Shown one piece after another: positions 133-35,805 of a DNA stretch of 35,948 nt. The notes beneath the pieces are model-generated. The model worked only from the letters and a program-made list of their open reading frames with translations. It was not told where the DNA came from and did no database searches. The position numbers and the translations under genes were made by a program. Within the stretch, counting starts at the first letter, position 1. Each line of letters opens with the position of its first letter. The stretch comes from Ignavibacteriota bacterium (lineage in GTDB: Bacteria > Bacteroidota > Ignavibacteria > Tepidaquicellales > Tepidaquicellaceae), in assembly GCA_026390735.1 (NCBI GenBank), contig JAPLFJ010000068.1:1-35948 (forward strand), written 5' to 3'.

Positions 133-1140
133 ACCAATACAGGTTCGTATCCATTAACAAACTGGGAAAGCTATCCGATTACTTCTGATCTATCAATAGA
201 TTCAATATTTAATCGAGGAAAAATTAATAATTATGGCCCTAGAAATTATACAGTCTTTATTTACAATAGCGAAGTATATGTAAGAGATAGCAGAAACAAT
301 GAAAGTGATTTTAGCATATCAAATGATGAATCATGGATTTACAAATTAGGATGTGGTTATATTAATGACAAAACTAAAGTTTTTAAAATAGAACAAGGAT
401 ATTTGATATACTGCAATCGTGGTGAATGGGTTGGGGAAATTGATTTTTTAGACTCAATTAGCAACACAAGGTATGAAATATCAAAATGTAATGTAGAAAA
501 CATAATTACAAATAAAGGAAAGATATATGCTGTTGTTTACAATATTGGATCCGAACCTCTTTTTGGAATGAAAGTTCTTGAAATATCTAATATAGATAAC
601 AAATGGAACGTTACTAATATTATAAACCATTCCAAACAGAAAGTCTTTATCAGAAACAATAAATATGTTACCGAAGACAACAAAGATGTACCCTCTTGGG
701 GTTTAGTCGTACAAGATTTTCATGATTCATTAAATTATTCAAAATTTGATTCCACATATAGTTATATAGTAGATTATCCTAAGAAATTATTTTTTGACTC
801 AAAGGATAATATGTTCGTTTTGACAACCAAATATCTGATTAAGAGAACTTCTGAATCAATTGCCGACACAATAGCAAATGAAAATACAAATTCGCAATTA
901 CTTTCAGAGTTTATGGCTTTTGATTCAAAAGACAATATGATTGTATTGAGAAAGGATGCCCTCATAAAAGTTAATGCTGATTTATCCTTTAATGTTTTAT
1001 CAAGCATCGACTTACTAAAGAATTCAAAAGAAATTACTTCGTTGGCAATAAAAGATGATATTGTTTATATAGGTTTGAAGAATTTTGTGTATAAATATGA
1101 TTTGAGAAATAATTCAGAAGCATTGTTGACGAAGTTTTAA
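133..1140 (+). pseudogene. 5'-truncated gene: C-terminal beta-rich domain of a TPR protein
   Basis: The frame is open from 133 (after a stop at 130-132) to TAA at 1140, but it has no ATG or GTG in its first 270 bases. The first usable start is a TTG at 403. The translation from about 150 onward resembles the C-terminal domain of the intact TPR protein at 1818-3335. Shared blocks include W-x-SY near the beginning, an EQGYL/NDGYL block, the (F/I)DSKDNMIV motif, and the end (IYxGLKNxVYKYDL, then NN). Homology starts well upstream of the TTG, so the TTG is unlikely to be a true start. The simplest reading is a paralogue that lost its signal peptide and TPR region through stops at 88, 109 and 130. 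The domain looks like a small beta-propeller or sensor fold, but that is inference. Confidence 0.6.
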
Positions 1141-16558: not shown

Positions 16559-16657
16559 TTATCTGGCGATAAATCCGACTACAAGCATACCTATGACGAC
16601 AGAAATACCAACTAGAAAACTGAAGTCTGCGCCTGTGAATGATTTAAGATTTTTCAT
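16559..16657 (-). CDS. Solo FTGAD membrane micropeptide, 32 aa
   Basis: ATG at 16657 to TAA at 16559 encodes MKNLKSFTGADFSFLVGI and then a hydrophobic helix ending VGFIAR. It is a diverged homologue of the five tandem peptides at 21568-22244: identical length, MK-x-(I/L)-K-x-FTG-(A/T)-D-(I/F)-SF start, Gly at 17, GFI near the end and a final basic residue. The conserved layout is a short basic cytosolic N-terminus, an FTGAD motif at the membrane boundary and one ~20-residue transmembrane helix. A -24/-12-like promoter lies 61 nt upstream of the ATG, the same distance as at the array, and a terminator follows. The coding call rests on cross-locus conservation; the function is unknown. Confidence 0.8.
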   Translation of the reverse strand: MKNLKSFTGADFSFLVGISVVIGMLVVGFIAR

Positions 16658-16703
16658 TTTTTTATTTTTAATGTTTATAAATTTCAATTATACTGTTTAT
16701 ATA

Positions 16704-16718
16704 TCAATTTCCGTGCCA
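16704..16718 (-). promoter_or_regulatory. Sigma-54-like promoter of the solo micropeptide
   Basis: The minus strand reads TGGCAC-GGAAA-TTGA. It continues into TATATAAACAGTATAAT, closely matching the promoter at 22291-22305. The -12 GC doublet is GA in both. Distance from the first T to the ATG is 61 nt in both. Only a GTCTCA half-site (16736-16741) is seen upstream. Confidence 0.6.
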
Positions 16719-16828: not shown

Positions 16829-17243
16829 GGTGACAAGGTAACAGGGTGAAAAAGTAACAGGGTGAAAAAGTGACAAAGTGAAAAAGTAACAGGGTGACAA
16901 AGTAACAGGGTGAAAAAGTGAAAAAGTAACAGGGTGAAAAAGTGAAAAAGTAACAGGGTGAAAAAGTGAAAAAGTAACAGGGTGACAAAGTAACAGGGTG
17001 ACAAAGTAACAGGGTGACAAAGTAACAGGGTGACAAAGTAACAGGGTGACAAAGTAACAGGGTGACAAAGTAACAGGGTGACAAAGTAACAGGGAGACAA
17101 AGTAACAAGGTGAAAAAGTAACAGGGACAGGGTGAAAAAGTGACAAAGTGAAAAAGTAACAGGGTGACAAAGTAACAGGGTGACAAAGTAACAGGGTGAC
17201 AAAGTGACGAGGTGACAAAGTGACAAGGTAAGGAAGTGAGGGA
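16829..17243 (+). repeat. Octanucleotide minisatellite (about 50 units)
   Basis: Tandem 8-bp words of the type (A/G)(A/G)(A/G)GT(G/A)AC, mostly alternating AAAGTAAC and AGGGTGAC to give a 16-bp period. Because 8 is not a multiple of 3, all three minus-strand frames stay open with 8-residue periodicity (SPCYFVTL…); these are not genes. It lies between the solo micropeptide promoter and the T9SS cargo gene at 17333. Confidence 0.95.
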
Positions 17244-20276: not shown

Positions 20277-20930
20277 TTAGATTTTCACCCAAGGTTCTTT
20301 TTCATTTTTACAGATAGTACATTTCTTTATGTCGGCTTCGTTTGTAACAGTGTTTCCGCATACAGGACAGACCCAGTAAGCTGATGGAAGTTTATCGACT
20401 GTTTTACCGTCGAGTGCTTTGAGTGCATCTTCGTAGAATACTTTATGTTTAGCTTCCGTACGCATTGCAAAGTCGAATGACTTTGAAGCATCTTTTCCTG
20501 TTTCTCCCATTGAGTCTGAGAGTTTTTTGAATTCAGGATACATATTTATTGCCTCGTGTGTTTCGCCTTTGATAGCGTCCTCAAGGTTTTCCTTTGTGGT
20601 TTTAACAGTGAACTCAGGTTTTACTTCAGGAGCTTTCTCACCGAGTTTTTCGAGAACGGCTTTATGGTTCTTTACATGAAATGCTTCTGATTTAGAAGCT
20701 GCTTCAAATAGCTTAGCGATGTTATCGAAACCTTCTTCTTTTGCTTTTCTGGAATAGGCTTCATACTTAGCGCTTGCTGTTGATTCGCCAGTAAAGGCAT
20801 CTTTCAAGTGCTGAACGAGTTTCTGTTTATCTGCATCAGAAACTTTTGGTGTTTCTTCTTTCTTGCCGCAACCTGCGATGACGGCAAATATTAATAAGAA
20901 AGAAAACAAATAAATTAATCGTGACTGCAT
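20277..20930 (-). CDS. Exported rubrerythrin lipoprotein, 217 aa
   Basis: Rubrerythrins are non-haem di-iron peroxidases that reduce H2O2, with electrons passing through a rubredoxin site. The ferritin-like di-iron ligands are visible: E49, E82-x2-H85 (SEAFH), E123/E126 (GETHEA) and E159-x2-H162 (TEAKH). The C-terminal rubredoxin-like knuckles are C188-x2-C191 and C204-x2-C207. The N-terminus is unusual: a lipoprotein signal (LIYLFSFLLIFAVIAGC, lipobox Cys 21) places this normally cytosolic enzyme in the periplasm. A strong Shine-Dalgarno (GGAGG, 5 nt spacing) supports the start. It lies 42 nt downstream of a haem-binding protein gene on the same strand, which suggests a periplasmic peroxide-defence or electron-transfer pair. 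Confidence 0.93.
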   Translation of the reverse strand: MQSRLIYLFSFLLIFAVIAGCGKKEETPKVSDADKQKLVQHLKDAFTGESTASAKYEAYSRKAKEEGFDNIAKLFEAASKSEAFHVKNHKAVLEKLGEKAPEVKPEFTVKTTKENLEDAIKGETHEAINMYPEFKKLSDSMGETGKDASKSFDFAMRTEAKHKVFYEDALKALDGKTVDKLPSAYWVCPVCGNTVTNEADIKKCTICKNEKEPWVKI

Positions 20931-20972
20931 AAATCCTCCGTATATTTGATTATAAAAAGTGTTGCTTTATTA

Positions 20973-21428
20973 TTAAAGTGAATCTTTCAGGTTCTTAGCC
21001 CAGTCCAATAGCATTTTAACATCCGCATCCGACATCTTTGCCTCGGGATGCAAGGGAAGATAAATTGACATTGGCATTTCACCATCTTTAACTTCGGTGA
21101 TTATTCCGTCGAGTTTATCAATCATCCTTGATTTATCATAATCAGTCCAGACGGAAAAGTTAAGATGTTTTCTGCCGTCATTAACATCATTGTTAACAAG
21201 ATAAACGACGGGAGAAATTTTGCTGTACCACGGCCATTTAGTTCTGTATGAATGACAATCGAAGCAGGATTTTTCGAGTTTCTGAAAAACGTTATCGGGA
21301 ATCTGATGTTTGGATGTAATGAATTTTGATTTATCTTCAACGGGATTGACCGTATCGGGTTTAAAGAACTGAAGAGCAATGATAAGAACTATTACAACAA
21401 CTGCAGCTATTTTCAATATCTTTTTCAT
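20973..21428 (-). CDS. Haem-binding (Haem_bd-type) c-type cytochrome domain protein, 151 aa
   Basis: An N-terminal membrane anchor or uncleaved signal (IAAVVVIVLIIALQFF, ~8-22) is followed by one CxxCH haem site (C55, C58, H59 in SCFDCHS). Then come the characteristic WPWYSKISPVVYLVNNDV, GRKHLNFSVW and GEMPMSIYLPLHPEAKMSD blocks of the Haem_bd family. The protein would hold a covalent haem in the periplasm and probably carries electrons. It is the upstream partner of the exported rubrerythrin (gap 42 nt), so it could supply electrons to it; that link is inference. Confidence 0.9.
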   Translation of the reverse strand: MKKILKIAAVVVIVLIIALQFFKPDTVNPVEDKSKFITSKHQIPDNVFQKLEKSCFDCHSYRTKWPWYSKISPVVYLVNNDVNDGRKHLNFSVWTDYDKSRMIDKLDGIITEVKDGEMPMSIYLPLHPEAKMSDADVKMLLDWAKNLKDSL

Positions 21429-21512
21429 GTTGGGAATTTTCTACGAGCTTAGCAATTTAGTAATCAAATTGAAACAGCGTAATTAATGACGATGTTTATC
21501 TGTATTTGTAAT

Positions 21513-21548
21513 TAAAAAAAGCCGAAAGCATGGCTTCCGGCTTTTTTT
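21513..21548. terminator. Terminator at the end of the micropeptide array
   Basis: AAAAAAAGCCGAAAGC-ATG-GCTTCCGGCTTTTTTT, a long stem with one mismatch and A/T-runs on both sides. It follows the last array peptide on the minus strand and shares its stem sequence with hairpins at 16501 and 20219. Confidence 0.85.
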
Positions 21549-21567
21549 GATATACTTTAATTAATAC

Positions 21568-21666
21568 TTATTTGACTATGAATCCAGTTACCAGCAAACT
21601 TACTACCATGATTATTCCGACCATGAAACTGATATCTGCGCCTGTAAACTCTTTGATTGCTTTCAT
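21568..21666 (-). CDS. FTGAD membrane micropeptide A, 32 aa (array position 5)
   Basis: ATG 21666 to TAA 21568. It starts MKAIKEFTGADISF, followed by one hydrophobic helix ending TGFIVK. A GGGGAAAA purine run lies ~5-10 nt upstream. Against peptide C it has one amino-acid change (Ala3/Thr) but seven synonymous codon differences, the signature of protein-level selection. Last gene before the terminator. Confidence 0.85.
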   Translation of the reverse strand: MKAIKEFTGADISFMVGIIMVVSLLVTGFIVK

Positions 21667-21717
21667 TTTGTTTTCCCCTTTTACTTTTTGTGTTTTTAAA
21701 ATTGTTTAGTGATTGAT

Positions 21718-21816
21718 TTATTTAACTATGAATCCTGTTACGAGTAAACTTACTACTAAGATGATTCCGATCATGAAACTGAAGTCTGTACCTGTGAATG
21801 ATTTAATGTTTTTCAT
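21718..21816 (-). CDS. FTGAD membrane micropeptide B, 32 aa (array position 4)
   Basis: ATG 21816 to TAA 21718, preceded by AAAGGGGAAACAA. It begins MKNIKSFTGTDFSF and continues as one hydrophobic helix ending in Lys. The protein is identical to peptide D, 286 bp away, consistent with duplication of a two-gene unit. Confidence 0.85.
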   Translation of the reverse strand: MKNIKSFTGTDFSFMIGIILVVSLLVTGFIVK

Positions 21817-21859
21817 TTGTTTCCCCTTTGTGTTTTAATTTTTAATTTTAATGTTTGAT

Positions 21860-21958
21860 TTATTTAACTATGAATCCTGTTACGAGTAAACTTACTACCA
21901 TGATTATTCCGACCATGAAACTGATGTCTGCGCCTGTGAATTCTTTGATTGTTTTCAT
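21860..21958 (-). CDS. FTGAD membrane micropeptide C, 32 aa (array position 3)
   Basis: ATG 21958 to TAA 21860, with AAAGGAAAATTAAAA before it. It begins MKTIKEFTGADISF and ends TGFIVK. It is the sister of peptide A (same FMVGIIMVV helix variant). Genes recur every 142-150 bp through the array. Confidence 0.85.
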   Translation of the reverse strand: MKTIKEFTGADISFMVGIIMVVSLLVTGFIVK

Positions 21959-22003
21959 TTTTAATTTTCCTTTGTGTTTTATGTTTTTAATTTAATGTTT
22001 GTT

Positions 22004-22102
22004 TTATTTAACTATGAAGCCTGTTACGAGTAAACTTACTACTAAGATGATTCCGATCATGAAACTGAAGTCTGTACCTGTGAATGATTTAATGTTTTTC
22101 AT
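22004..22102 (-). CDS. FTGAD membrane micropeptide D, 32 aa (array position 2)
   Basis: ATG 22102 to TAA 22004, with AAAGGGGAAACAA upstream. The protein is identical to peptide B (MKNIKSFTGTDFSF…); the coding sequences differ at one synonymous base (GGC versus GGA glycine near the end). Confidence 0.85.
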   Translation of the reverse strand: MKNIKSFTGTDFSFMIGIILVVSLLVTGFIVK

Positions 22103-22145
22103 TTGTTTCCCCTTTGTGTTTTAATTTTTAATTTTAATGTTTGTG

Positions 22146-22244
22146 TTATTTAACTATGAATCCTGTTACGAGTAAACTTACTACTAAGATGATTCCGATC
22201 ATGAAACTGAAGTCTGCGCCTGTAAATTGTTTGATTGCTTTCAT
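22146..22244 (-). CDS. FTGAD membrane micropeptide E, 32 aa (first gene of the array)
   Basis: ATG 22244 to TAA 22146, preceded by AAAGGAAAATTAAAA. It begins MKAIKQFTGADFSF with the FMIGIILVV helix variant and ends TGFIVK. The -24/-12-like promoter begins 61 nt upstream of its ATG, giving a predicted leader of ~35 nt. Hydrophobic, single-pass, with Lys at 2, 5 and 32 and a conserved Asp11 at the helix start. No known family recognised. Confidence 0.85.
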   Translation of the reverse strand: MKAIKQFTGADFSFMIGIILVVSLLVTGFIVK

Positions 22245-22290
22245 TTTTAATTTTCCTTTGTTTTAAGTTTTAAATTATACTATCTGTATA

Positions 22291-22305
22291 TCAATTCCCG
22301 TGCCA
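22291..22305 (-). promoter_or_regulatory. Sigma-54-like promoter of the micropeptide array
   Basis: The minus strand reads TGGCAC-GGGAA-TTGA then TATACAGATAGTATAATTT. The -24 element is perfect; the -12 has GA for GC. The same variant and downstream sequence stand before the solo peptide at 16704-16718. Confidence 0.65.
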
Positions 22306-22356
22306 AACTTTTAGTTACGATTACAGGCTGTTTTTGCACTTTACTTAAAATTGTGA

Positions 22357-22392
22357 GTCTCAAAATGAGACAGCCATTCTCAAATTGAGAAT
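22357..22392. promoter_or_regulatory. Two palindromic activator-type sites upstream of the array promoter
   Basis: GTCTCA-AAA-TGAGAC (22357-22371) and ATTCTCAAATTGAGAAT (22376-22392), centred 59 and 79 bp upstream of the -24 element and 20 bp apart. The same sites at the same distances occur at the promoter of the 1183-residue T9SS protein. Likely enhancer-binding-protein sites. Confidence 0.7.
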
Positions 22393-22531
22393 CCGGTTAC
22401 ATGAATCTCGACGAACGAATATTACACTCGATGAACGGGAATCGTTTGTAGATTATAAAGATGTTTCATCGCAATCCCAACCGAATGTTGCGTTATTTTA
22501 TTGTTTTGGGGGTTTCGGGTAGACTCAGTTT

Positions 22532-22546
22532 GTCTCATTTTGAGAC
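22532..22546. promoter_or_regulatory. Distal palindromic activator-type site
   Basis: GTCTCA-TTT-TGAGAC, centred 234 bp upstream of the array -24 element. It also lies ~150 bp upstream of the divergent gene at 22690, which shows no -24/-12 site of its own. The rest of 22245-22689 is AT-rich without other clear features. Confidence 0.65.
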
Positions 22547-22689
22547 TGGGGAATCTGACAGATTCATTCCTTTTTAACGAATTATAATTTATGTAGATTA
22601 TTTATGTATAATAAAATATATATTTAGGTCCGGGAGGAACAATCGGGCAGTTTTACAGTTAAATAAATAACAAATTCTAATTAATTGCT

Positions 22690-23760
22690 ATGAAGACACA
22701 TTTTAAGATTTTCGCGGCACTAATGCTGATAGTTGTATTGTTTAATTTATCCTTTGCACAGGGAAATGACGATAAAGTAATATTATGCGACAACTACGAT
22801 ACTTTATACAGTATGATTAACAAGGGTATACCCGCATCGATGTACAAGAGTGCAACAATAGAAGGTTTTACACTTGTTGAGAAAAGTATGATAACGGTTT
22901 ATCCGAAAGTCAGCGAGGGATATTTAGTGGAGATGCAGATAATAAAGATAACGCAGGGAGAGAATTTCGGAAAGTATGAGAGCAATGCAGTACTCGGATT
23001 CTTTGCATCAGGGTGCAAGGAATTTAAAAAGAATTTCAGCAGGTTTAACAAAACATCCTGCAGGTTTTATGCAGACAGTCCTGAAGATGCGATGGATGCA
23101 GCAAGAAACGGGATATCGGTTACGATAGAGAGCAAGTATATTCTGGAAGGAACGCTGGTGGATACGTATAAAAAGATTTGTTTTTCAGACGCTCCCGACC
23201 CGATGCCTGTAAAGAAGCCTGCCGTGTATCTTTATCCGACAGAGCAGGTGAACGTTTCGGTAAAGGTTAACGTGAATGGGAAACTTACTTACACTGACCC
23301 GGCATACGGTACGGGATGGAACGTGAACGCGACAGCTGACGGAATGATAGATAACAAATATGATTATCTTTTCTATGAAGCGGATTTGAACAAGGTTGAA
23401 CTTCCGAACGAAGGTTGGGTAGTAGAGTATGGAAATCTGAAAGAATGGTTTGAAGAATATCTGCCGAAACTTGGATTGAACAAGAAAGAGAAAGAACAGT
23501 TTGAAGAATACTGGCTTGCGAAATTAAGGAAGGCAAAGTACTACGACATAAGAATACTGGGAGATAAATTCCTTGCAGAGAATATGGAGTTGCTGATTGA
23601 GCCGAAACCTGAGACATTGTTAAGACTGAACTTTTACTTTAAGCCGTTGAGTTCGAAGACAGAGTTAACGGCGCCTGAGATAAAAGGAGTAAGGAGGAAA
23701 GGATTTACGGTTGTAGAGTGGGGTGGTGTAGACGGCGGGGAGTTGAGGATAGTGCCGTAG
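22690..23760 (+). CDS. Secreted KPxxYLYP-domain protein, 356 aa
   Basis: A signal peptide (~1-23, FAALMLIVVLFNLSFA, cleavage before Q) is followed by an N-terminal region of ~150 residues with several cysteines (C33, C109, C124, C164). The second half begins KPAVYLYPTEQVNVSVKV (176-193). It runs on with GKLTYTDPAYGTGWNV, a YDYLFYEAD block and a helical WFEEYLPKLGLNKKE segment. I recognise this as a recurring bacterial secreted domain (KPxIYLYP motif) but know no established function. Divergent from the micropeptide array and sharing its regulatory region. Confidence 0.75.
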   Translation: MKTHFKIFAALMLIVVLFNLSFAQGNDDKVILCDNYDTLYSMINKGIPASMYKSATIEGFTLVEKSMITVYPKVSEGYLVEMQIIKITQGENFGKYESNAVLGFFASGCKEFKKNFSRFNKTSCRFYADSPEDAMDAARNGISVTIESKYILEGTLVDTYKKICFSDAPDPMPVKKPAVYLYPTEQVNVSVKVNVNGKLTYTDPAYGTGWNVNATADGMIDNKYDYLFYEADLNKVELPNEGWVVEYGNLKEWFEEYLPKLGLNKKEKEQFEEYWLAKLRKAKYYDIRILGDKFLAENMELLIEPKPETLLRLNFYFKPLSSKTELTAPEIKGVRRKGFTVVEWGGVDGGELRIVP

Positions 23761-24211: not shown

Positions 24212-25591
24212 TTATAATAGAGTGCCACTTAAGAATATTATTGCGACGAGGAAATATATGACGAGGCCTGTGACGTCGACGAGTGTTGCGACGAAAGGGG
24301 CGGATGATTTTGCCGGGTCGAACTTTAACTTCCTTAATATAAGAGGAAGCATAGAGCCTGAGAGTGTTCCCCATAAGACAACGAGTACAAGAGAAAATCC
24401 GACAGTGAATGCTATCAATATCCAGTGTTCGCCGTAAACGTTTGAAAATGCAGACCACACAGAAATCCTTATAAATCCTATAATACCAAGAATGGTTCCG
24501 AGTAATAATCCTGACAGAACTTCCCTTTTCATAATCTTCCACCAGTCTGAAAGTGCTACCTCTCTCAAAGCCATTGCCCTTATTATTAATGACGTTGCCT
24601 GAGAACCTGAATTACCTCCGCTGGAAATTATAAGCGGAATAAAAAGAGCAAGCACCACTGCTTTTGCAATCTCGTTTTCAAAGAAACCCATTGCAGTTGC
24701 AGTAAGCATTTCGCCGATAAAAAGTATCACGAGCCACACGGCACGCTTCTTCACCATCTGAAGCAATGGAGTTGCCATGTATGGTTCATCGAGTGCTTCC
24801 GTACCGCCAAGGCTCTGCATCTCGCGAGTATCTTCACGTTGAGCAACGTTCAGAATATCATCGATAGTAACGATTCCGATAAGCAAACCCGCATCATCAA
24901 TCACTGGCAGAACCGTCCGTGCATTCTTTTTAAACAAATCAATTGCTTCATCAAGGTCCTGCGATGTTTTCAGGTACAGGAATTTATTATCCATCACATC
25001 GCTAATCTTTTTATCAAGCGGAGCAAGCAGGAGTTCGCGGCTTCTGACATCATCAATCAGTATTCCCCCATCATTAGTAACGTACACGACATTCAGAGTT
25101 TCGCTGTCATTTCCGTTTGTCCTTATAAAATTGAGCGCTTCTTTAACCGTCCAGGAACTTTGAATAGTAATGTAATCAGGCGTCATCAGCCTGCCGACAG
25201 AATTTTCAGGATAACCGAGAAGTGACAAAGTTACCTTCCTCTCTTCTTCGCTGAGTAACTCCATAAGTTCTTTCACAACCTTACCAGGCAGACTGCTGAG
25301 CAGAGCGGTTCTGTCATCGGGCGCCATTTCATTCAGAATACTTTCTATCTGCCCGCCTTTAAGAATGTTCAGGATTTTCTTCTGATCGGAGAAATCGAGA
25401 AACTCAAAAGTCTTCGCGGCAATTTTCAGAGGAATCAGGTCAAGCAGAATAAGCTGTTCAGCGGGTGAAAAATATTTTATAATGTCCGCAAGTTCCGGAG
25501 GCTGAAGTACCTGAAGAAATCCTTTAAGCTCAAGAAACTTCTTCTCTTCGATGTAAGAACTTATTTCAGGAAACTTTGTATTAGATGCCAT
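24212..25591 (-). CDS. mgtE: MgtE-family magnesium transporter, 459 aa
   Basis: Domain order is the full MgtE plan. The cytosolic MgtE N domain (~30-130) has LLSLLG-type Mg2+-sensing helices (ALLSSLPGKVVKELMELLSEEERK). A CBS pair follows (~137-255, VGRLMTPDYITI and a second half ending LIGIVTIDDIL). Then come five transmembrane helices, including the pore-lining signature SSGGNSGSQATSLIIRAMAL. MgtE is a homodimeric Mg2+ channel gated by Mg2+ binding to the N and CBS domains. Length is typical (450-ish residues). Stands alone on the minus strand; terminator adjacent. Confidence 0.96.
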   Translation of the reverse strand: MASNTKFPEISSYIEEKKFLELKGFLQVLQPPELADIIKYFSPAEQLILLDLIPLKIAAKTFEFLDFSDQKKILNILKGGQIESILNEMAPDDRTALLSSLPGKVVKELMELLSEEERKVTLSLLGYPENSVGRLMTPDYITIQSSWTVKEALNFIRTNGNDSETLNVVYVTNDGGILIDDVRSRELLLAPLDKKISDVMDNKFLYLKTSQDLDEAIDLFKKNARTVLPVIDDAGLLIGIVTIDDILNVAQREDTREMQSLGGTEALDEPYMATPLLQMVKKRAVWLVILFIGEMLTATAMGFFENEIAKAVVLALFIPLIISSGGNSGSQATSLIIRAMALREVALSDWWKIMKREVLSGLLLGTILGIIGFIRISVWSAFSNVYGEHWILIAFTVGFSLVLVVLWGTLSGSMLPLILRKLKFDPAKSSAPFVATLVDVTGLVIYFLVAIIFLSGTLL

Positions 25592-25726: not shown

Positions 25727-26500
25727 CTATCTCACTTTCATAAAGAAAGTTTTATACGGTCCTTTAGGTTTTTCTTTTTCGGTTTTTATTGGAGGGACTA
25801 CAGGGTCAGGATCTCCTTTCACTATTATACCATTGTTTTTTGACCAGACAGGTTTATTCTTAAGGTTCTGGGAAACTACTGCGGGAAACACTACCACCTT
25901 TTTGAAATCTTTCATTATCTCAAACTGAGACGGTTCAACATCAAACTTATACAAAGCAGCTTCATTTTGCTTAAGCACTAAATCTTTAGGTTCCTGTTCA
26001 AGTACTGCTGTTGCCTCCCTGTTTCCTTTACTAACATCAACGGGAAAACACATATAAACAAATGCTATAAAGTAATAAGGAGGAACGGTAGTTTCACAGA
26101 AATCTTTATCAGGATAAAACTCATAAGAAAGAGAATCAGCGTCCATCTTCACATTCCTGAAAGAGCCTAAATGTTTCAGGGGCAGAATACTAAATAAAGT
26201 AGAGACATAATCTTTTTTTACAGATTTATAATTATATTTAAACATTTTATGGTAAGGTTCTTTACCCGGAAGTTTAGAATAGTTCCAAACAAGACCGATA
26301 AGAGGTGATTCATCAAAAAACCTGAAGAAAGTGGATCGTCTTGAAAAGATACTTCTGTTTTCAATCAGCCGTTCGGAAGTAGTTTTCTTGTAATGCCTGA
26401 TTCTTTTAGCTGAATAGTCTGTGCCTTTATTGCTTTTAACGACAACGTCGCCGACAGCACCTTTCACTTTTCCAAGAATACCGTGTTCGAATAATGCCAT
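25727..26500 (-). CDS. DUF6266-like protein, 257 aa
   Basis: The start at 26500 is chosen over 26557 because AGGAGGT lies 7 nt upstream. The N-terminus (MALFEHGILGKVKGAVGDVV followed by VKSNKGTDYSAKRI) follows the G-x-L-G-x-x-x-G-x-V-G-x-V-V pattern with a basic stretch seen in DUF6266 and related Bacteroidota proteins. The remaining 200 residues are mixed alpha/beta with a Pro/Lys-rich tail (PPIKTEKEKPKG). There is no signal peptide. The family has no firm function. The family match is a memory-based suggestion. Confidence 0.6.
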   Translation of the reverse strand: MALFEHGILGKVKGAVGDVVVKSNKGTDYSAKRIRHYKKTTSERLIENRSIFSRRSTFFRFFDESPLIGLVWNYSKLPGKEPYHKMFKYNYKSVKKDYVSTLFSILPLKHLGSFRNVKMDADSLSYEFYPDKDFCETTVPPYYFIAFVYMCFPVDVSKGNREATAVLEQEPKDLVLKQNEAALYKFDVEPSQFEIMKDFKKVVVFPAVVSQNLKNKPVWSKNNGIIVKGDPDPVVPPIKTEKEKPKGPYKTFFMKVR

Positions 26501-26809
26501 TTTCAGACCTCCTAAGTATAAATTTTCAATTAAATTTATTAATGCCCCTGCCTGCACATTGCTAAAGTGTTGCAGGATATTGACTAAATTACTGCTAAAT
26601 CAGGTGGATTACAAGTGTATTTGATGTGGGTTAGACGTGTATTTGATGTGTATTAGGTGCTTAAAAATGCTGTTTTGGGATTTTAAGGCATTTTTTGCCG
26701 AAAAATCCAATAGAATTTCAGAGAATTCTGTAATGTACGAATGATTATACATTATAATAGTTAAACAAGTGGTTGCTGAAAAAAGTTCCCGGAAAATGAA
26801 GAATAAGGA

Positions 26810-27540
26810 GAGCAATTATACAGTTACGAGTGAAAACGTGCACAAAATGGCAAGAAAAGATAGAAGAAGGAATGGAACGCGGATGATGCTGATTTTTAAG
26901 AGCGATGACTGCTGATAGAGATTTTTTAGGGTTAAAGAAGAGCAATTCAGAATTATGAATGATGAATTGAAGAGCAAGAGAAAATTGGAACGCGGATTTA
27001 CACTGATTGAACGGATAAGAGCGGATAGAGATTTTTTAGGGTTAGAGAAGAGCAATTCAGAATGATGAATTGAAGAGCAAGAGAAAATTGGAACGCGGAT
27101 TTACACTGATTGAGCGGATAAGAGCGGATAGAGATTTTTTAGGGTTAGAGAAGAGCAATTCAGAATGATGAATGATGAATTGAAGAGCAAGAGAAAATTG
27201 GAACGCGGATGACGCTGAAAGAACGGATAAGAGAGCAATGATGAATTATGAATGATGAATTGAAGAGCAAGAGAAAATTGGAACGCGGATGACGCTGAAA
27301 GAGCGGATAAGAGAGCAATTCAGAATTCAGAATTCAAACGCGGATGACGCCGAAAGAGCGGATAAGAGCGGATAAAGATTTTTTAGGGTTAGAGAAGAGC
27401 AATTCAGAATTCAGAATTATGAATGATGAATTGAAGAGCAAGAGAAAATTGGAACGCGGATGACGCCGAAAGAACGGATAAGAGCGGATAGAGATTTTTT
27501 AGGGTTCAAGATAAGAAAAGATAATTCTGGTTTAAAAGAG
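26810..27540 (+). repeat. Mosaic word-repeat block 4 (largest)
   Basis: At least six passes through the unit 'AATTGGAACGCGGAT…', '…GAGCGGATAAGAGCGGATAG', 'AGATTTTTTAGGGTTAGAG' and 'GAATGATGAATTGAAGAGCA', with word-level insertions and deletions. The whole gap 26501-27772 has no gene; 26600-26650 carries a small GTGTATTTGATGTG direct repeat. Confidence 0.85.
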
Positions 27541-29432: not shown

Positions 29433-29467
29433 GTCTCATAATGAGAAAACTTGTCTCAATATGAGAC
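29433..29467. promoter_or_regulatory. Two palindromic activator-type sites upstream of the T9SS gene
   Basis: GTCTCATAATGAGAA (29433-29447) and TTGTCTCAATATGAGACAA (29451-29469, a perfect palindrome around ATA), centred 79 and 59 bp upstream of the -24 element. Identical geometry to the sites before the micropeptide array. Confidence 0.75.
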
Positions 29468-29518: not shown

Positions 29519-29534
29519 TGGCACTCTAATTGCT
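29519..29534 (+). promoter_or_regulatory. Consensus sigma-54 -24/-12 promoter
   Basis: TGGCAC-TCTAA-TTGCT, a full match to the consensus, with its first T 56 nt upstream of the ATG at 29575 and a predicted leader of ~30 nt. Confidence 0.85.
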
Positions 29535-29574: not shown

Positions 29575-32500
29575 ATGAAAACTTTATTTAAAACATTGGG
29601 GATGTTAGGATTGTTTTTCTTTCTGCTGGGAATAGCTACTCCTAGTGATGCTCAGATAAAATACTGGAAGAACAAGAGCACAGGTAGTTGGAATACGGCT
29701 GCAATTTGGCAAAGTTCTACAGACGATATAATATATGATGATGATGCTTCTTATCCTAATAAAACATCTATGAGTTCTGAAACAGATTATCCAACTGACT
29801 TTGTTCGAATAGTAACAGGAACTATGACATTTAATCAAAGCAGTATATATTTATGCTATCTATCAATTGAAACAGGGGCTGCAATGACAGTTAGTACAAC
29901 AAAAAAGTTATATGTTTATAAAAATGAGTCAGAAATCATTGGTAGCTTTTATGTTCAAGCTAATGCTACTTTTACGATTGCATCAACAGGTAGTGCTACT
30001 TATGGTACCTTTACAACAGGACCGAATGTTTATTCGGAAATTACAATTGATGGCTGTTTTAACAATGGTCCAGCATTAACTACTCCAGGTAAATATGCTA
30101 TTGCTTCTTTTTCAGGAACATTAGTGAATCATTCTACTAAATTAAATAATTACAACACACTTACAAGTCCATCTTCAAAAATGTTCCAAATTAAAGGTAT
30201 CTTTAGAAATTATGAAGATCTAGCAACTGAAGGAAATATCTCTATGGTTTCAGGTTGCATTTACGAACATTGCTTTACGGAGGCCCCAGGTACAATTCCA
30301 AATTCACTTTGGGCAGCTAATTCAACATGCAAAATTGAAAGTTATACTTTAAATGCAGATGCACCAGGCGGACTTGGTCAAACATTTGCTAACTTAATAT
30401 GGAATTGTCCAAATCAAGAATCTGATATAAATTTCCTCGGATCTCTGAATGCCGTAGGTGGAGATTTTACTGTTTCGTCGACAGGTACGGGTAGTATCTC
30501 TTTTGATGTCACTGATAATTTATCTCCTTTAACTATTTCAGGTACGTTTACATTAGAAGGTGGAAAAGTTTATTTGAATAATTTTATAGATTTTGCTAAT
30601 GATAATACATATACAAACCTATCAGGAAATGTAGTCTTAACAGGAGGAACACTTAAAAATTGTAAATCGGGTTCAAGTATTGGATATATAACTTTTAACA
30701 AACAGAACACACCTCAAGTACTTACAATTAATTTGACATCTATTCAAGGTAAAATTGCATTTAAAGTAGCATCTGGTTCATCTTTGGAATTTGGGAATAG
30801 TAGTTCAGTTTTATTAAATACAGATTTAGGTTCTACTTTTGATGTATTAACAGGAGGAGCCTTGAGAATAAGACATATTTATGGTATTTCAAGTTCAGGT
30901 TCAACTGGATGCATTCAAGTTGGAGGGACAAGAACATTTAGCAATAGTGGAACTTATGATTATTGTGGCGACGAACTTCAAATTACTGGTAATGGGTTAC
31001 CTACATCATTAGTTGCTGGTCAAATTATTATTGGTAATCCGTCGGGGGTTAAATTATCAAATAATTATGATTTTAGCAGTGCAAGCGGTGGATTAACAGT
31101 AAATAACTCGGGTTATCTAATTTGCAACTCATATTATATAAGTGGTTCTGGATTTTTCACTTTTAACTCGGGATGTAAAATTGCTATTTGCAGCGCGAAT
31201 GGCATAGTTGGTGGTGTTACTTCCGTAGGAAATATAAGGAACTCTGGGACAAAAACATTGAATACTGAAGCAACTTATGAATATGTTGGAACATCCGCTC
31301 AAACAACAGGGTCCGCTCTGCCATCATCAGTTCAAAATTTGTTAATTAATAATTCATCAGCTACTGGTGTTACATTAACAAATGATGTTACCGTTAGCAA
31401 TAGTTTAACATTGACAGATGGAGAATTAATAACAAACTCTAAGAATCTGATAATAAGTAACTCATATACGATAACATCAGGTACTATTTCAGGAGATAAT
31501 GCCTCAACATTAACAATAAATGGTTCAGGGGCAATAACTGGCTCTTTAACTTTTACTCCATCCTATCAGGTTTTAAAAACATTAACAATTAATAGATCTG
31601 CAGGAACAGTAACATTAGGTTCTCCATTAACATTAGATGGAACAACAGATGGTACTTTAAATTTAACAGCAGGTACACTTGATATTTCAGGTCGAACATT
31701 AACTTTTATAAAAGGAAATACACCAATTGTAAAAGGTGCTGGTTTTATTACAACAAGTACAAATTCAGGTTTAGTATTTGGAACAGAAGGAAATACGGGC
31801 GGAAGTGCATTCCTAATTCCTGCTGGTACATTCACATCTGCACCTATTGTTAATAACTTTTCAGTAAACAGAACAAACAGTCTAACACTTACGCAGGATT
31901 TGAATGTAAATGGAACCTTAACTTTGACTTCAGGTCTTTTAATTGGTTCCACAAACAATAATTTAGTAACTCTCGGTAATGCTTCGGGAAATGGTATTTT
32001 ATCATTACCTACACCTGTTACAACAGGAAGAATTGTTGGAAATTTTAAAAGGTTCCTTTCTTCACCGGATAAAACTTATATTTTCCCAATAGGAACAACA
32101 ACAAATTATAATGGTATTGTAATTGATTACGCTGGTGGTGTTTCTGTTGCAGGATCATTGACTGCGGCTTTTACAGTTGGCGACCCGGGAAACAACAATA
32201 ACCCAAATCCTATTGATGATGCAAACCCAACTTATACTGTTAATAAATACTCTCAATTTGGATATTGGACAATTTTAAATACAACAGTTGCAGGTACATA
32301 TTCAATTGATGTAAATACAAATGGATTTACAGGAATTCGTATGGGCTCAACCCAGACAGATAAAGATTGTAGAAGTAACTTAAGATTGCTAAAAAGAAGT
32401 GGTTCTACAGTCAATTGGTCATTAGAAAATACTTACGTTGCAGCAACCGGTGATGATCACACAAATATGGTAGTAAAAAGAGCAGGACTGACAACTTTTA

Positions 32501-33126
32501 GTGAGTTTGCATTAGGAAGTAATATGAATGACAATAACTTCGACGGTCCACTACCTGTAACTTTGTCATCATTTAACTCAACATTAAATGCACGTGATGT
32601 AAACCTTAAATGGGTAACATCATCAGAAATTAATAATGCAGGATTTGATGTAGAAAGAAAAACAATTGAAGGTACCTGGTCTAAGGTTGGTTACGTAAAA
32701 GGAAACGGAACAGTTAACTCATCATCAACATACAATTTCACAGACAGAAAATTAAACGCAGGTAAATTCAATTACAGACTAAAACAGATTGACAATAACG
32801 GTAACTTTGAATATCATAACTTAAGCGGAACAGTAGAAGTAGGCGTTCCGAAGGATTATGCACTTTCGCAGAACTATCCGAATCCGTTTAATCCGACTAC
32901 AAAGATTGACTTTGCACTGCCATTCGACAGTAAGGTTTATATGGTAGTTTATGATATGACGGGCAGAGAAGTGAAGACACTCGTAAACGAAGCAAGACAA
33001 GCAGGATACCATACAGTAGAAATGAATGCGAGTATGCTTTCGAGCGGAACGTATTTCTTCAGGATAATAGCAAATGCAAACGGTAAGGATTTTATAAGTA
33101 CAAAGAAGATGGTATTAGTGAAATAA
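29575..33126 (+). CDS. Large secreted beta-strand-repeat protein with T9SS sorting domain, 1183 aa
   Basis: A signal peptide (~1-26, LGMLGLFFFLLGIATPSDA, cleavage before Q) leads into a start typical of Bacteroidota surface proteins (YWKNKSTGSWNTAAIWQSS). About 850 residues of Ser/Thr/Gly/Asn-rich beta-solenoid-like repeats follow (LTLTDGELITNSKNLIIS, LNLTAGTLDISGRTLTF, LTLTSGLLIGS). An LPVTLSSF linker and an Fn3-like module (DVNLKWVTSSEINNAGFDVE) come next. Residues ~1095-1183 are a T9SS type A sorting domain (YALSQNYPNPFNPTTKIDF, VVYDMTGREV, SGTYFFRI, ending KKMVLVK). The likely role is a surface-attached adhesin or structural filament exported through the type IX system. It is preceded by the best sigma-54 promoter in the window with three activator-type palindromes. 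Confidence 0.92.
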   Translation: MKTLFKTLGMLGLFFFLLGIATPSDAQIKYWKNKSTGSWNTAAIWQSSTDDIIYDDDASYPNKTSMSSETDYPTDFVRIVTGTMTFNQSSIYLCYLSIETGAAMTVSTTKKLYVYKNESEIIGSFYVQANATFTIASTGSATYGTFTTGPNVYSEITIDGCFNNGPALTTPGKYAIASFSGTLVNHSTKLNNYNTLTSPSSKMFQIKGIFRNYEDLATEGNISMVSGCIYEHCFTEAPGTIPNSLWAANSTCKIESYTLNADAPGGLGQTFANLIWNCPNQESDINFLGSLNAVGGDFTVSSTGTGSISFDVTDNLSPLTISGTFTLEGGKVYLNNFIDFANDNTYTNLSGNVVLTGGTLKNCKSGSSIGYITFNKQNTPQVLTINLTSIQGKIAFKVASGSSLEFGNSSSVLLNTDLGSTFDVLTGGALRIRHIYGISSSGSTGCIQVGGTRTFSNSGTYDYCGDELQITGNGLPTSLVAGQIIIGNPSGVKLSNNYDFSSASGGLTVNNSGYLICNSYYISGSGFFTFNSGCKIAICSANGIVGGVTSVGNIRNSGTKTLNTEATYEYVGTSAQTTGSALPSSVQNLLINNSSATGVTLTNDVTVSNSLTLTDGELITNSKNLIISNSYTITSGTISGDNASTLTINGSGAITGSLTFTPSYQVLKTLTINRSAGTVTLGSPLTLDGTTDGTLNLTAGTLDISGRTLTFIKGNTPIVKGAGFITTSTNSGLVFGTEGNTGGSAFLIPAGTFTSAPIVNNFSVNRTNSLTLTQDLNVNGTLTLTSGLLIGSTNNNLVTLGNASGNGILSLPTPVTTGRIVGNFKRFLSSPDKTYIFPIGTTTNYNGIVIDYAGGVSVAGSLTAAFTVGDPGNNNNPNPIDDANPTYTVNKYSQFGYWTILNTTVAGTYSIDVNTNGFTGIRMGSTQTDKDCRSNLRLLKRSGSTVNWSLENTYVAATGDDHTNMVVKRAGLTTFSEFALGSNMNDNNFDGPLPVTLSSFNSTLNARDVNLKWVTSSEINNAGFDVERKTIEGTWSKVGYVKGNGTVNSSSTYNFTDRKLNAGKFNYRLKQIDNNGNFEYHNLSGTVEVGVPKDYALSQNYPNPFNPTTKIDFALPFDSKVYMVVYDMTGREVKTLVNEARQAGYHTVEMNASMLSSGTYFFRIIANANGKDFISTKKMVLVK

Positions 33127-35049: not shown

Positions 35050-35805
35050 TGTAGGACTTCGGAGAAAAGAGATTTCCCGGGAAATACACGAAATACACGA
35101 AAGAAAGATTAAAGAAAAGAATCCGCGAATTAGACTAATTAGACGAATTAAACGAATTAGAGATTTTTTAAGGGATAGAGATTAGAGATTTTTTCCCGCT
35201 AAATACACGAAAGGCACTAAAGAAAGATTAAAGAAAAGAATCCGCGAATTAGACTAATTAGACGAATTAAACTAATTAGAGATTTTTTTAGGGTAAGAGA
35301 TAAAGAAGGATTGGAACGCGGATGACGCTGATTTTTAAGAGCGATGACCGCTGATAGAGATTTTTTAGGGTTAGAGATTAGAGATTTTTTCCCGCTAAAT
35401 ACACGAAATACACTAAAGAAAGATTAAAGAAAAGAATCCGCGAATTAGACTAATTAAACTAATTAGAGATTTTTTTAGGGTTAGAGATAAAGAAGGATTG
35501 GAACGCGGATGACGCTGAAAGAACGGATAAGAGCGGATAGAGATTTTTTAGGGTTAGAGATTAAAGAGAAAGAACTTTTCCCGCGAAATTCACGAAAGGC
35601 ACGAAAGGCACGAAGGAAAGATTAGAAACTTTGTCCTCTGATTATACAGATTAGAACAGATTAAAAAATCAGAGAAAAGATGTCCGCGAATTACACTAAT
35701 TAAGCGAATTAAACGAATTAGAGATAAGAACACTTTTAGGGTTAGAGACAAGATAGAAAAGTAATGGAGTAGGGAGTAGGGAGTAAGGAGTAGTGAGGAA
35801 GTGAG
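35050..35805 (+). repeat. Mosaic word-repeat block 7
   Basis: Repeated passes of TTTCCCG(C/G)GAAATACACGAA, AAGAAAAGAATCCGCGAATT, AGACTAATTAGACGAATTA, 'GATTTTTTAGGGTTAGAGA' and GGAACGCGGATGACGCTGA, ending with GGAGTAGGGAGTAAGGAG words. No gene; 34870-35049 upstream is AT-rich spacer with only the AAA gene's own leader. Confidence 0.85.

What the first reader, a model, noticed from the sequence alone, without database searches (positions are those of the whole stretch)
21568..22305. Tandem array of five 32-residue FTGAD membrane micropeptides
Seen: five ORFs of exactly 99 nt on the minus strand, 142-150 bp apart, each with an upstream purine run. Each encodes MKxIKxFTG(A/T)D(I/F)SF, one hydrophobic helix and a terminal GFIVK. 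One promoter-like site precedes them and one terminator follows. Known: hydrophobic peptides of this size include type I toxins and small regulatory membrane proteins, but I know of no family with the FTGAD motif. Inference: a co-transcribed multi-copy envelope micropeptide operon, apparently undescribed.
Basis: partly seen in the sequence, partly recalled or inferred. Interest (0 to 1): 0.92.

Follow-up and report, generated by a model that had tools for sequence, protein, structure and literature searches.

The report
Sigma-54-controlled membrane micropeptide array
Five near-identical 32-residue single-helix membrane peptides stand in a row behind what looks like a sigma-54 promoter with binding sites for a dedicated activator, and belong to an apparently unnamed peptide family that in related bacteria often sits inside the signalling operon itself.

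Summary
The five ORFs are real, and a sixth copy lies at 16559-16657(-). Mostly silent differences among homologues show that they are translated. No family match worth the name in Pfam, NCBIfam, PHROGs or PDB sequences. That architecture recurs in the genome (24 of 33 palindrome clusters, random mean 1.25), often before secreted proteins, and tracks one NtrC-type activator across genomes. Relatives of the peptide occur in 12 genomes of six genera of one family. Of 30 peptide starts examined, 22 have a sigma-54 element upstream (3 of 134 control ORFs), and 15 of 30 are followed by a single-domain receiver gene. Best explanation: an inducible membrane peptide that feeds back on, or tethers, a sigma-54 phosphorelay, the array being a dosage expansion of an alternating two-peptide unit. 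Family and control are well supported; the molecular action is inference, and an effector role is almost as likely. In one related genus the core locus has the receiver but no such peptide.

The parts
22146..22244 (-). micropeptide 1 in transcription order (w5, mosaic of subtypes A and B), 32 aa
22004..22102 (-). micropeptide 2 (w4, subtype B)
21860..21958 (-). micropeptide 3 (w3, subtype A)
21718..21816 (-). micropeptide 4 (w2, subtype B, same peptide as w4)
21568..21666 (-). micropeptide 5 (w1, subtype A)
21517..21538 (-). terminator-like hairpin with T run after the array
22290..22305 (-). sigma-54 -24/-12 element TGGCACGGGAATTGAT, 61 bp before the first ATG (the -12 part is TTGAT, not TTGC)
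22357..22371 (.). activator-site palindrome, 66 bp above the -24 start, no mismatch
22377..22391 (.). activator-site palindrome, 86 bp above the -24 start, two mismatches at the outer bases
22532..22546 (.). distal palindrome, 241 bp above the -24 start, no mismatch
16559..16657 (-). sixth, stand-alone micropeptide copy
16703..16718 (-). sigma-54 element of the sixth copy, TGGCACGGAAATTGAT; only a half palindrome (TGAGAC) above it
29433..29467 (.). pair of palindromes of the same kind, 86 and 66 bp above a second sigma-54 promoter of the regulon
29519..29534 (+). sigma-54 element TGGCACTCTAATTGCT before the type IX-secreted protein 29575-33126
29575..33126 (+). co-regulated 1183-aa protein with type IX sorting tail

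Best explanation
The array encodes members of a family of roughly 29-38 residue, single-helix membrane peptides that are outputs of a sigma-54 phosphorelay. Shown by sequence: (1) the peptides are under protein-level purifying selection; (2) most of their transcription units carry a -24/-12 sigma-54 element, about half with recognisable activator palindromes; (3) the palindromes track one NtrC-type activator (receiver, AAA+, HTH_8; about 451 aa) that is encoded next to a receiver-histidine kinase without a predicted sensor domain; (4) in the core locus of several genomes that activator is followed by promoter, micropeptide and a CheY-like single-domain receiver. Inferred: when the kinase activates the activator, peptide and receiver are induced together with surface and type IX-secreted proteins; the peptide inserts as one helix, perhaps pairing through conserved small residues, and acts back on the relay, by anchoring the receiver or a kinase at the membrane or by damping a membrane sensor. 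The FTGAD array is a dosage expansion made by duplicating a two-peptide (A/B) unit, under the same promoter but away from the receiver. Confidence by step: real coding family 0.95; sigma-54/activator control 0.9; feedback or tethering action 0.35.
For: Coding: synonymous to non-synonymous differences 12:4, 16:2, 13:4, 11:6 in four homologous pairs with about one synonymous to 3.5 non-synonymous sites. Control: 24 of 33 palindrome clusters with a sigma-54 site at the right distance against a random mean of 1.25, maximum 6 of 2000; pair spacing 20 bp in 23 of 25; distances 64-66, 74-76, 84-86, 96, 110, 120 bp. Composite motif in 27 of 294 genomes, none in the reversed control. Activator orthologues (63% identity or more) in 12 of 43 genomes of the order, motif in 12, shared 11. 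rpoN present. Peptide starts with a sigma-54 element 22 of 30, control ORFs 3 of 134; palindrome with at most one mismatch above 16 of 30 (no control); single receiver downstream 15 of 30, activator directly upstream 6 of 30 (no control). Small residue 5 before and 1 before the invariant Gly in 15 of 22 rows each.
Against: The array itself lies beside no signalling gene. The -12 element is TTGAT instead of TTGC in both window units. In G026 and G028 the core activator is followed by a receiver with no micropeptide between, and none was seen at that place in G019, so the peptide is not obligatory for the relay. In G011 the core has peptides but no receiver. Eight of 30 starts lack a scored sigma-54 element. 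One relative sits in an ECF-sigma/LTXXQ/PqqD operon. No interaction, topology or expression data exist here.
Confidence: 0.38

Rival explanations
1. The peptides are effectors, not regulators: an abundant inner-membrane component needed when the regulon turns on surface and type IX-secreted proteins, as membrane protection or as an accessory subunit of a transport or assembly complex. High copy number supplies dosage.
For: Array and sixth copy stand alone, away from signalling genes; of nine regulon proteins tested by Pfam, six have type IX tails; the peptide is missing from the core locus of G026 and G028.
Against: Half of the starts examined are followed by a single-domain receiver, and two own C50 units are peptide-receiver pairs, which an effector role alone does not explain.
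Confidence: 0.32
2. Type I toxin-like peptides that depolarise the membrane, as the Ldr and Ibs repeats of E. coli do (families recalled; reviews seen only as listing).
For: Size, hydrophobicity and tandem repeats.
Against: No promoter-like site on the antisense strand of 21400-22700 by a sigma-70 consensus (the host's promoters may differ); no Rfam family in the window; inducible sigma-54 control; conserved signalling context.
Confidence: 0.08
3. Leader peptides: translation of the small ORF matters only for expression of the gene behind it.
For: Often directly before a receiver gene.
Against: Amino-acid sequence is conserved while silent sites change; the array is followed by a terminator, not by a coupled gene; same family in different operons.
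Confidence: 0.05
4. Secreted product: leaderless bacteriocin pair, modified peptide or pilin-like subunit.
For: Alternating A and B peptides; one relative beside a PqqD-like protein.
Against: No exporter, immunity or modifying enzyme recognised among the ORFs of 100 aa or more of the window (by eye, with Pfam on ten of them); no prepilin motif (recalled consensus); conserved signalling context.
Confidence: 0.07

Closest known systems
MgrB of the PhoQ/PhoP system (47-aa inner-membrane feedback peptide; PMC2789325, abstract and outline seen)
   Same: tiny single-helix membrane peptide made by a gene of the regulon of the phosphorelay it may act on
   Different: different sequence and length, sigma-54/NtrC-type control, co-encoded receiver, tandem arrays; feedback not shown here
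Sigma-54 regulons with tandem activator sites (PMC4641369 and PMC12316311, passages seen)
   Same: -24/-12 element and palindromic activator sites upstream, found by comparing genomes
   Different: other binding motif; regulon of surface and type IX-secreted proteins and micropeptides; 'ignavi' does not occur in the main text of PMC12316311
Ldr/Ibs type I toxins (recalled; PMC8309996 seen as listing only)
   Same: small hydrophobic peptides in tandem repeats
   Different: no antisense promoter or RNA family found; regulated promoter; tie to a phosphorelay
PEP-CTERM genes under RpoN and PrsK/PrsR (PMC9850573, listing only; details recalled)
   Same: sigma-54 phosphorelay controlling secreted surface proteins
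   Different: type IX instead of exosortase cargo; includes membrane micropeptides

Membership tests
sigma-54 dependent transcription unit | -24/-12 element with GG and GC at fixed spacing | tested here: inconclusive
   TGGCAC, spacing and TTG present; GC of the -12 is GA in both window units; family-wide enrichment 22 of 30 against 3 of 134
sigma-54 dependent transcription unit | activator sites upstream, in helical phase | tested here: met
   for the array; the sixth copy has only a half site
sigma-54 dependent transcription unit | rpoN and a matching activator in the genome | tested here: met
   the match of activator to site is by co-occurrence
sigma-54 dependent transcription unit | loss of transcription without sigma-54 | not testable with these tools
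   needs an experiment
type I toxin-antitoxin | antisense RNA over the toxin transcript | tested here: inconclusive
   no antisense sigma-70-like site, no Rfam match; host promoters may differ
type I toxin-antitoxin | growth arrest on over-expression | not testable with these tools
   needs an experiment
MgrB-like feedback peptide | made by the regulon of the relay | tested here: met
   by motif and locus only:
MgrB-like feedback peptide | binds and represses the sensor kinase | not testable with these tools
   needs an experiment; the kinase beside the activator has no Pfam sensor domain
any described protein family | profile or sequence match | tested here: not met
   Pfam and PHROGs on 22 members: one member at best, E 0.025 or worse; NCBIfam on five; PDB sequences, one hit E 0.24

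The most novel reading that the evidence does not exclude
A new class of signalling micropeptide: sigma-54 phosphorelays in this lineage make a single-helix membrane peptide together with a stand-alone receiver; the peptide, as A/B hetero-oligomers, is a membrane platform that captures receiver or kinase and sets the gain of the relay, and arrays such as this one tune that gain by gene copy number.
Probability: 0.2. Interest if true: 0.85.

Novelty: new variant of a known kind. Interest (0 to 1): 0.6.

Why it matters
It adds an apparently unnamed family of conserved membrane micropeptides with a ready regulatory handle (promoter, binding site, activator, kinase) in a phylum for which the paper searches made here found no account of sigma-54 activators or, in the three papers listed, of such small proteins (listing only). 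Such peptides escape usual annotation; finding them through a shared promoter shows a way to find more. It makes testable how tiny membrane peptides might act back on phosphorelays outside the proteobacterial examples.

Tried and rejected
A profile of the five window peptides alone gave matches at E 1 or better in 62 of 99 genomes; judged by score, nearly all are short fragments; those kept were G004 C243 and G003 C292. The genome-contig scan returned one locus, the G004 contig. I first guessed that ORF 24212-25591 was the activator; it is an MgtE transporter. A first composite pattern used a wrong gap (2 of 149 genomes) and was repeated.

Rows dropped: of 31 starts listed one (second G006 pair, mistyped) was not found. 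G022 C8 (contig edge), the hits in G017 and G034 (judged spurious) and eight genomes outside the family (G073, G178, G210, G221, G222, G227, G229, G285) were not followed. Own C50:175 was left out because its promoter seems to lie on another contig, and included; L208 gives two starts and one. The G019 peptide (L193) was found through the promoter pattern, so it is circular; without it 21 of 29. Loci for one search came from the 50 places that one search listed of 51. Among promoter matches outside the family, 11 regions from eight genomes were read; none had a peptide of this family.

Full report
Observation. The array fits 2.5 copies of a 286-bp unit (90% matches) as well as 4.9 of a 142-bp unit (83%): subtypes A (KxIKEFTGADISFMVG) and B (KNIKSFTGTDFSFMIG) alternate, the two B peptides are identical, and the promoter-proximal peptide is a mosaic. 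A sixth copy at 16559-16657(-) has its own copy of upstream element and terminator.

Is it a protein? Differences are mostly silent: the G004 pair has 12 synonymous and 4 non-synonymous, G003 against G001 16 and 2, own C50:175 against G004 C97 13 and 4 (over the shared part), w1 against G004 11 and 6. Against the ratio of sites the binomial p is 4e-6, 3e-9, 4e-6 and 1e-4; for the more distant sixth copy against G004 (14.5 and 15.5) 0.003. Pairs were chosen and are not independent. Within the array dN/dS runs from 0 to 0.57, the high values resting on few changes. AlphaFold gives one helix (residues 3-30 of 31, mean pLDDT 83, five-row alignment); best 19-residue hydropathy is 2.6-2.7 in the five peptides computed.

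Control. Both units carry TGGCACGG(G/A)AATTGAT 61 bp before the first ATG: a sigma-54-like -24/-12 element whose -12 reads TTGAT, not the usual TTGC. Above that of the array lie palindromes at -66, -86 and -241. The genome holds 51 such palindromes with at most one mismatch, 8 for the reversed control. In the loci read, 24 of 33 clusters have a sigma-54 site (score 13 or more) 55-145 bp downstream, against a random mean of 1.25 and a maximum of 6 in 2000 placements; at score 14 it is 18 against 0.66. Of 25 close pairs, 23 are 20 bp apart; distances to the -24 are 64-66 (14 times), 74-76 (5), 84 and 86, 96, 110, 120, close to steps of one helical turn. rpoN is present.

Activator. The composite motif occurs in 27 of 294 genomes of the class and not in the reversed control; 12 of the 27 genomes, with 76 of 96 matches, are in the window's family, 15 outside it. 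An activator with receiver, sigma-54 interaction and HTH_8 domains (own C60:703-2055) has orthologues at 63% identity or more in 12 of 43 genomes of the order (one cut by a contig end), the next best matches being 43% or less. The motif occurs in 12 of these 43, 11 shared, Fisher p 2e-8. Exceptions: G026 (activator, with a one-mismatch palindrome beside it) and G017 (motif only). The link of activator and site rests on this co-occurrence and on the core locus.

The wider family. A profile of eleven peptides (A3) finds matches in 13 of 44 genomes of the order at E 0.05, two of them judged spurious; one of 22 peptides (A4) in 20 of 294 of the class at 0.01: 12 in the window's family, from six genera, and eight weak ones elsewhere. 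In A4 one Gly is invariant, and D11, F14 and F29 are nearly so; small residues stand 5 and 1 before that Gly in 15 of 22 rows each, which could let helices pair. Of 30 starts examined, 22 have a sigma-54 element 30-230 bp upstream against 3 of 134 ORFs of 150 aa or more in the same loci (p 1e-17); 16 of 30 have a palindrome with at most one mismatch further up. Fifteen of 30 are followed within 700 bp by a single-domain receiver, three others being cut by a contig end, and six have the activator directly upstream.

Core locus. Receiver-kinase, activator, promoter, micropeptide, receiver, TPR protein and M64-type peptidase follow one another in G002, G003 and G009 (Pfam on representatives); G001 and G004 hold parts on short contigs, and the own genome has them on the ends of contigs C60 and C50. 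G011 has two peptides but no receiver there. Against this, in G026 and G028 the activator is followed by the receiver with no micropeptide between, and none was seen at that place in G019; in G019 another locus has the composite promoter, a 36-aa membrane peptide of different sequence and a receiver. Pairs of peptides occur in G002 C9, G003 C292, G006, G010, G011 and G022 as well.

Regulon. Many first genes behind these promoters in the own genome begin with a signal-peptide-like stretch (by eye). Type IX tails were found in the window protein 29575-33126 and in five of eight others tested (L148, L152, L154, L156, L158; not L151, L155, L066). The genome has at least 150 such tails (150 of 276 candidates were scored), so this is a subset, and no enrichment was tested.

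Mechanism. Shown: coding, control elements, context. Inferred: induction with the regulon, and action on the relay (feedback or membrane tether), because the peptide is repeatedly co-encoded with a receiver in the activator's own operon. The effector rival is almost as likely: the array stands beside no signalling gene, and the relay can lack the peptide.

Known or new. No useful match in Pfam, NCBIfam, PHROGs or PDB sequences. The held papers contain neither the two palindrome strings nor the two peptide strings searched, and none with Ignavibacter, sigma-54 and enhancer binding together; type IX secretion with sigma-54 gave four papers, seen as listing. Sigma-54 regulons and feedback membrane peptides are known kinds (PMC2789325 abstract; PMC12316311 and PMC4641369 passages). 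I file this as a new variant of a known kind. The host is taken to be an uncultured Ignavibacteriota bacterium from the one named relative, the record, which has the length and match of G004 C243.

Noticed in passing
G000 contigs C60 (L144, first 160 bases) and C50 (L145, first 160 bases): Both contigs seem to end in the same inverted sequence (CACTACTGTCCCGT...) beside a shared ATATAATTT: probably an insertion sequence between the core promoter (C60) and the first micropeptide-receiver pair (C50), so the own core unit may be uncoupled (by eye).
   Followed up: partly
L214 (G004 C248) 419-523 (-): A family member in another setting: sigma-54-like element, ECF sigma factor, small protein, LTXXQ (Spy/CpxP-like, below cut-off) protein, micropeptide, PqqD-like protein.
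   Followed up: partly
L193 (G019 C28): A 36-aa membrane peptide of different sequence stands between the composite sigma-54 promoter and a receiver gene.
   Followed up: no
L189 (G061 C1): Composite promoter before a 30-aa membrane peptide and what looks like kdpA; possibly sigma-54 control of potassium uptake (by eye).
   Followed up: no
window 16829-17229: About 25 copies of a 16-bp repeat GGTGACAAAGTAACAG between the sixth micropeptide and a type IX-secreted protein.
   Followed up: no
window 26914-27327 and 35073-35301: Longer intergenic tandem repeats of 80-119 bp with GAATTAGA-like or AAGAGAAAATTGGAACGCGGAT-like units.
   Followed up: no
window 25727-26557 (-) and L010 665-1441 (-): A protein without Pfam match whose 39% identical relative is the first gene upstream of the G004 array: a trace of shared neighbourhood.
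   Followed up: partly
window 20277-21428 (-): After the array terminator lie a haem-binding-domain protein and a rubrerythrin-like protein with a lipoprotein-like start.
   Followed up: no
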